A stretch of 64,000 nt of DNA from Dirofilaria immitis (Eukaryota; Nematoda; Chromadorea; Rhabditida; Onchocercidae). The first letter of the stretch is position 1; the number at the start of each line of letters is the position of its first letter. The notes under the pieces are model-generated. The model did no database searches and was not told where the DNA came from. It saw nothing but the letters and a program-made list of their open reading frames with translations. Below are positions 55,441 through 55,551 of the stretch, piece by piece. Position numbers and translations under genes: made by a program. The stretch is from contig JAKNDB010000088.1 of assembly GCA_024305405.1 (NCBI GenBank), positions 943,501 through 1,007,500 on the forward strand, written 5' to 3'.

Positions 55441-55551
55441 TTCACAGTTGGTCAAAGAAAAGGCTTAGGTGTTTCACACGATAAACCTCTTTATGTGGTC
55501 AAAATTAATACAGGAAAAAATGAAGTTATAGTGGGCCCAGCTTATGCATAA
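55441..55551 (+). pseudogene. mnmA: mnmA fragment (tRNA 2-thiouridylase), bacterial type, probable lateral transfer
   Basis: The frame FTVGQRKGLGVSHDKPLYVV, followed by KINTGKNEVIVGPAYA and a stop, matches the conserved (Y/F)TIGQRKGLG...PLYVV.I....N.VIVGP block of MnmA, the enzyme that thiolates U34 of some tRNAs. Only about 36 codons are present of a protein of about 370. The ATP-binding PP-loop and catalytic cysteines are absent, and random AT-rich DNA lies on both sides. The GQRKGLG form is typical of bacteria; animal mitochondrial TRMU is more divergent here as far as I know. A Wolbachia-derived nuclear insertion is the best reading; a decayed host mitochondrial paralogue is the alternative. 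The ATG at 55432 gives a 39-codon frame that is probably accidental. Confidence 0.8.

What the first reader, a model, noticed from the sequence alone, without database searches (positions are those of the whole stretch)
55441..55551. Bacterial-type mnmA fragment in a nematode chromosome: probable Wolbachia-to-host transfer
FTVGQRKGLG, KPLYVVKINT and NEVIVGP reproduce a conserved MnmA block in 36 codons ending at a stop, with AT-rich host-like DNA on both sides. Nuclear Wolbachia fragments are well documented in filarial nematodes, including species that no longer carry the bacterium. The frame is still open, so the transfer may be recent or the piece short by chance.
Basis: partly seen in the sequence, partly recalled or inferred. 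Interest (0 to 1): 0.75.

Follow-up and report, generated by a model that had tools for sequence, protein, structure and literature searches.

The report
Wolbachia gene scrap in heartworm chromosome
A 108-base piece of a bacterial tRNA-modification gene from a Wolbachia symbiont sits in a chromosome of what is most likely the dog heartworm; it looks like a dead fragment, one of the hundreds of such scraps already reported as a class in that species.

Summary
In a tree with 64 Anaplasmataceae mnmA genes it pairs with that genome at 100% support. It is not the worm's own TRMU, a separate split gene on another contig. Homology stops sharply on both sides; flanks are AT-rich and no second copy was found. 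The stop codon arises at the junction, and the open frame is uninformative (446 of 8963 stop-free stretches in the window are as long). Host: most likely D. immitis, which still carries Wolbachia. A second, older Wolbachia scrap lies at 50193-50342; a supergroup-F-like mnmA scrap lies on another contig. A 2025 paper reports 483 such regions in D. immitis, 85% supergroup C and 12% F. Verdict: an ordinary, very short, relatively recent NUWT; a new member of a known kind; no function likely. Junction reads could not be examined.

The parts
55441..55548 (+). Fragment of Wolbachia mnmA (36 codons of the middle, PRC-barrel, domain); supergroup C, wDimm-like
   Evidence: 104/108 bases to L024 (genome G040); 34/37 residues, next best 27/37, among 64 loci; Pfam PF20259 2e-11; tree
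55549..55552 (+). Right junction: TAAT, shared with the donor only after a 1-base gap; supplies the TAA stop
54441..55440 (.). Left flank, AT-rich host DNA, no second full copy found
55553..56552 (.). Right flank, AT-rich host DNA, no second full copy found
50193..50342 (-). Separate, older and decayed Wolbachia piece from a gene of unknown function
   Evidence: 126/151 bases to G040, 129/156 to G032; three-way count; no Pfam family in the 183-codon donor frame

Best explanation
It is a NUWT (nuclear Wolbachia transfer). A short fragment of symbiont DNA in the germ line of a filarial worm, most likely Dirofilaria immitis, was captured at a chromosome break and sealed in by end joining, and has drifted without selection since. 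Shown: Wolbachia origin, wDimm-like (supergroup C) affinity, sharp ends inside a 3.7-Mb contig, no second copy found, absence of nine tenths of the gene. Inferred: capture by end joining, lack of function, and host name.
For: DNA identity 104/108 to the wDimm-sized genome and 92/108 to the wOo-sized one (wDimm and wOo sizes from PMC8116671). Tree support 100. Host TRMU is separate. No second copy of the piece in the genome. Not a lone oddity: 19.9 kb of the same Wolbachia genome gives 40 matches on 18 contigs, 17 of them at 95% or more. The longest match is about 0.9 kb, so no live-symbiont contig is held for that stretch. The two nuclear-only changes alter amino acids (Tyr to His, Asp to Tyr), the two wDimm-only changes are at third codon positions, as expected of an unselected copy, though four sites prove nothing. 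No target-site duplication.
Against: No reads were examined, so the junctions rest on the assembly. The host name is inferred: ITS2 lengths of 526-537 are near but not equal to the published 542, and a recalled D. immitis primer (R1) did not match exactly. The wDimm name rests on genome length. In the single-gene tree the wDcau-sized genome (supergroup J) falls nearer to wDimm than the wOo-sized one (C) does, so the gene does not recover supergroup C as one group.
Confidence: 0.94

Rival explanations
1. Assembly artefact: symbiont reads were joined wrongly into a host contig.
For: The worm is probably infected, so symbiont reads would be present; reads not examined.
Against: The piece differs from the wDimm-sized genome at 4 of 108 bases, two of them private to the nuclear copy. 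It is flanked on both sides within one 3.7-Mb contig. Forty matches to one donor stretch on 18 contigs, of many different identities, are not what sporadic chimaeras give.
Confidence: 0.04
2. It is what is left of a longer insertion that was later trimmed by deletion, rather than a fragment that arrived short.
For: Longer pieces exist elsewhere in the genome, for example 696 bases at 96%; NUWTs of C origin in Onchocerca average 434 bp.
Against: At 96% identity there was little time for trimming; 23 of 40 matches to the sampled donor stretch are 200 bases or shorter.
Confidence: 0.2
3. It is an exon of a host gene, either the nuclear TRMU or a gene that took up the bacterial piece (the left edge TTCACAG looks like a splice acceptor).
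For: Acceptor-like bases at the left edge; frame open up to a stop.
Against: TTCACAG is part of the Wolbachia gene itself. Host TRMU lies on C61 with its own middle domain, and the piece has no significant DNA match there (best E 0.42). Frames of 80 and 107 codons just upstream match no Pfam family. No transcript data were available.
Confidence: 0.01

Closest known systems
Supergroup C NUWTs of Dirofilaria immitis (Vancaester et al. 2025, PMC12693587; abstract, all of Results, first part of Methods and first part of Discussion read)
   Same: Most likely same host; C-type Wolbachia origin; short, dead, scattered pieces
   Different: At 108 bases it is very short. With my own 32-gene mnmA model it scores 4.2e-21 against their cut-off of 1e-30, so it was probably not in their count; their tables were not seen
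mnmA scrap on contig C10 of the same genome (L076:5067-5482)
   Same: Also a Wolbachia mnmA piece in the nuclear genome
   Different: 3' end of the gene plus the downstream convergent gene; coding part 86/90 to G047 and G054 and 84/90 to wOc (supergroup F), but 78/99 to the wDimm-sized genome
Nuclear TRMU of the worm (C61:2255809-2257859)
   Same: Same enzyme family
   Different: Host gene in several pieces, with a divergent middle domain

Membership tests
NUWT (nuclear Wolbachia transfer) | Sequence nests within Wolbachia | tested here: met
   100% support with G040 and nested with other Wolbachia-like genes; 104/108 bases
NUWT (nuclear Wolbachia transfer) | Flanked on both sides by host nuclear DNA | tested here: met
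   Sharp edges, AT-rich flanks, 3.7-Mb contig
NUWT (nuclear Wolbachia transfer) | Not a contig of the live symbiont | tested here: met
   Longest match to 19.9 kb of donor is about 0.9 kb; no intact mnmA found in the assembly
NUWT (nuclear Wolbachia transfer) | Not a resident nematode gene | tested here: met
   Host TRMU is elsewhere and different
NUWT (nuclear Wolbachia transfer) | Junctions confirmed by spanning reads or PCR | not testable with these tools
   No reads held
Functional MnmA/TRMU enzyme | N-terminal catalytic (HUP) domain, middle and C-terminal domains present | tested here: not met
   Only positions 30-65 of 66 of the middle domain are present; the donor frame has all three Pfam domains
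Host is Dirofilaria immitis | Pan-filarial ITS2 amplicon of 542 bp | tested here: inconclusive
   526, 533 and 537 in three of four loci read; nearest of nine species in PMC9082910 is D. immitis at 542. Genome 86,694,620 bp against 86,813,779 for GCA_024305405.1

The most novel reading that the evidence does not exclude
Most Wolbachia scraps in this genome are too short for published screens. One 19.9-kb stretch of the wDimm-sized genome (2.2% of it) has 40 nuclear matches covering 6,446 of its bases, 23 of them 200 bases or shorter. Scaled up, that is roughly 1,850 pieces (about 1,160 counting only the 25 below 1e-30), against 483 published regions. Transfer as very short fragments would then be the usual mode, leaving a dense, datable record of past symbionts from at least two supergroups. 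The sample is one stretch, chosen because it holds the finding, and some of its weakest matches may be host sequence.
Probability: 0.5. Interest if true: 0.35.

Novelty: new member of a known kind. Interest (0 to 1): 0.2.

Why it matters
As a single item it matters little: one more dead symbiont fragment. As a sample it is a clean example of a very short insertion that can be placed by donor lineage and relative age, 5 kb from an older one. It also warns that short bacterial-looking frames in filarial assemblies are likely to be NUWTs and should not be annotated as genes.

Tried and rejected
Host TRMU exon: rejected. Chance similarity: rejected. Window 8127-8196, 83-84% to two Wolbachia genomes: an ATC microsatellite by eye. 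No tRNA (bacterial settings) and no Rfam family in the window. Eight further matches (48.2 bits or less), seven others (50 bits or less): weak, AT-rich, not followed. Target-site duplication: none among exact repeats of 3-15 bases at the ends tried. PDB sequence search: nothing useful. A DNA profile from all 64 genes gave no window match at 1e-3; profiles from 32 genes of one clade (support 58) and from 31 without L024 gave 4.2e-21 and 7.9e-20. Forcing the last four bases into the alignment gives 105/112 to L024 instead of 108/113. No structure was predicted and the search for homologous proteins was not used. Window bases 1-4400 were not compared with whole Wolbachia genomes; 4401-44300 were compared with five and 44001-64000 with eight. 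The 2012 D. immitis genome paper (recalled) is not held. Supplements of the 2025 NUWT paper were not looked at. A note in my notebook says 'about 23 contigs'; the recount is 18.

Full report
What is there. Window 55441-55548 encodes 36 codons of MnmA, the bacterial tRNA 2-thiouridylase. The window is G000:C18:943501-1007500 of an 86.7-Mb genome in 65 contigs. Of 67 genomes of the family reached through Wolbachia wOc, 64 have an mnmA match. All 64 loci match the peptide by tblastn; the best is L024 of genome G040 with 34 of 37 residues, and no other exceeds 27. At DNA level L024 gives 108 of 113 aligned bases with one gap, or 104 of 108 over the ungapped core. By the same test G032 (957,990) is wOo and G041 (863,427) is wDcau. 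These names rest on lengths; the genomes bear none.

Placement. A nucleotide tree of the 64 genes with two nuclear fragments added (midpoint-rooted) pairs this one with G040 at 100% support; G041 joins next (99) and then G032 (100). That order sets the supergroup J genome nearer to wDimm than wOo, so the single gene does not recover supergroup C cleanly. At the 108 core bases 2 sites are unique to the nuclear copy, 2 to the wDimm-sized genome and 14 to the wOo-sized one. The insertion therefore came from the wDimm line after it parted from wOo, fairly late on that scale. The two nuclear-only changes alter amino acids (Tyr to His, Asp to Tyr); the two wDimm-only changes are at third codon positions. 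One of the nuclear-only states (His) is the common one in more distant Wolbachia, so its direction is less certain.

Not the host gene. The worm's TRMU lies on contig C61, with matches in separate pieces from 2255809 to 2257859; the C-terminal match is weak (E 0.18). Its middle domain differs greatly, and the fragment has no significant DNA match to that 9.9-kb locus (best E 0.42). The splice-acceptor-like TTCACAG at the left edge belongs to the Wolbachia gene.

Edges. On the left, donor aaat|TTCACAG and nuclear ttcc|TTCACAG part at once. On the right, donor GCACTAATgcaaag and nuclear GCATAATcataat part after GCA, with a further shared TAAT. That junction makes the TAA stop. No target-site duplication was found, which fits capture at a break by end joining; that mechanism is inferred. 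A search of the genome with 2.1 kb around the piece found the locus itself and four short partial matches (38-126 bases, 72-92%) to its flanks, none to the piece.

Host. Six places matched a 5.8S primer and four became loci. Three of the four give a pan-filarial ITS2 amplicon, of 526, 533 and 537 bases; all three also hold a recalled D. immitis primer (F1), while its partner (R1) matched exactly in none. Among nine species in PMC9082910 (passages read) D. immitis at 542 is nearest; D. repens has 484. Genome size, 86,694,620, is close to the D. immitis assembly GCA_024305405.1, 86,813,779. I take the host to be D. immitis; it is not proven. That species carries live supergroup C Wolbachia.

Context. 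A 19.9-kb stretch of the wDimm-sized genome around mnmA has 40 matches in the nuclear genome, on 18 contigs, 46 to 896 bases long, median 156; 17 are at 95% or more, 7 at 90-94% and 16 below 90%. Some of the weakest (70-77%) may be host sequence. The 11.2-kb wOc contig (supergroup F) has 17 matches, at 67 to 86%; which of these are F-derived was not tested one by one. One is the 3' end of mnmA with its downstream convergent gene on contig C10. Its coding part is 86/90 to G047 and G054 and 84/90 to wOc; it lies in a seven-member clade with wOc at 98 support, though the node just above it has only 37. So this genome holds scraps of the same gene from two Wolbachia lineages, in line with the published mixture.

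Second insertion in the window. 50193-50342 (minus strand) matches the wDimm-sized genome at 126/151 and the wOo-sized one at 129/156 bases. Seventeen bases differ only in the nuclear copy, 7 only in wDimm and 7 only in wOo, with two gap columns. It is older, from about the time of the wDimm-wOo split or before.

Known or new. Vancaester et al. 2025 (PMC12693587; abstract, Results, first part of Methods, first part of Discussion read) screened D. immitis and report 483 NUWT regions, 85% supergroup C and 58 (12%) F. This finding is an instance of that. Their cut-off was 1e-30; my own 32-gene model scores this piece at 4.2e-21, and a 64-gene model missed it, so it was probably below their reach. 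That is inferred from my models, not from their tables.

Function. None is likely: 36 of 373 codons of the donor frame scanned, two of three domains missing and the third cut, a junction stop, and amino-acid changes. The open frame is uninformative: 446 of 8963 stop-free stretches in the window, six frames, are at least 42 codons. Expression was not tested.

Noticed in passing
window 50193-50342 (-): A second, older Wolbachia piece with two indels, about equally far from the wDimm- and wOo-sized genomes.
   Followed up: yes
L076:5067-5482 (G000:C10:10013067-10013482): 3' end of mnmA plus part of the next, convergent Wolbachia gene, close to the supergroup F genome wOc, not to wDimm.
   Followed up: partly
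G000:C53:846032, C54:1338, C41:1325 and C41:14065; donor L082:13128-13291: One stretch inside the Wolbachia gene murD (NCBIfam 1.2e-104 for the donor frame) matches the nuclear genome at four places at 80%, perhaps a piece copied after insertion.
   Followed up: partly
window 33979-34287 (+): Open frame with a BED zinc finger (Pfam zf-BED, 2.8e-05), probably a host or transposon-derived gene.
   Followed up: no
window 8127-8196: ATC microsatellite that mimics a Wolbachia match at 83-84%.
   Followed up: yes
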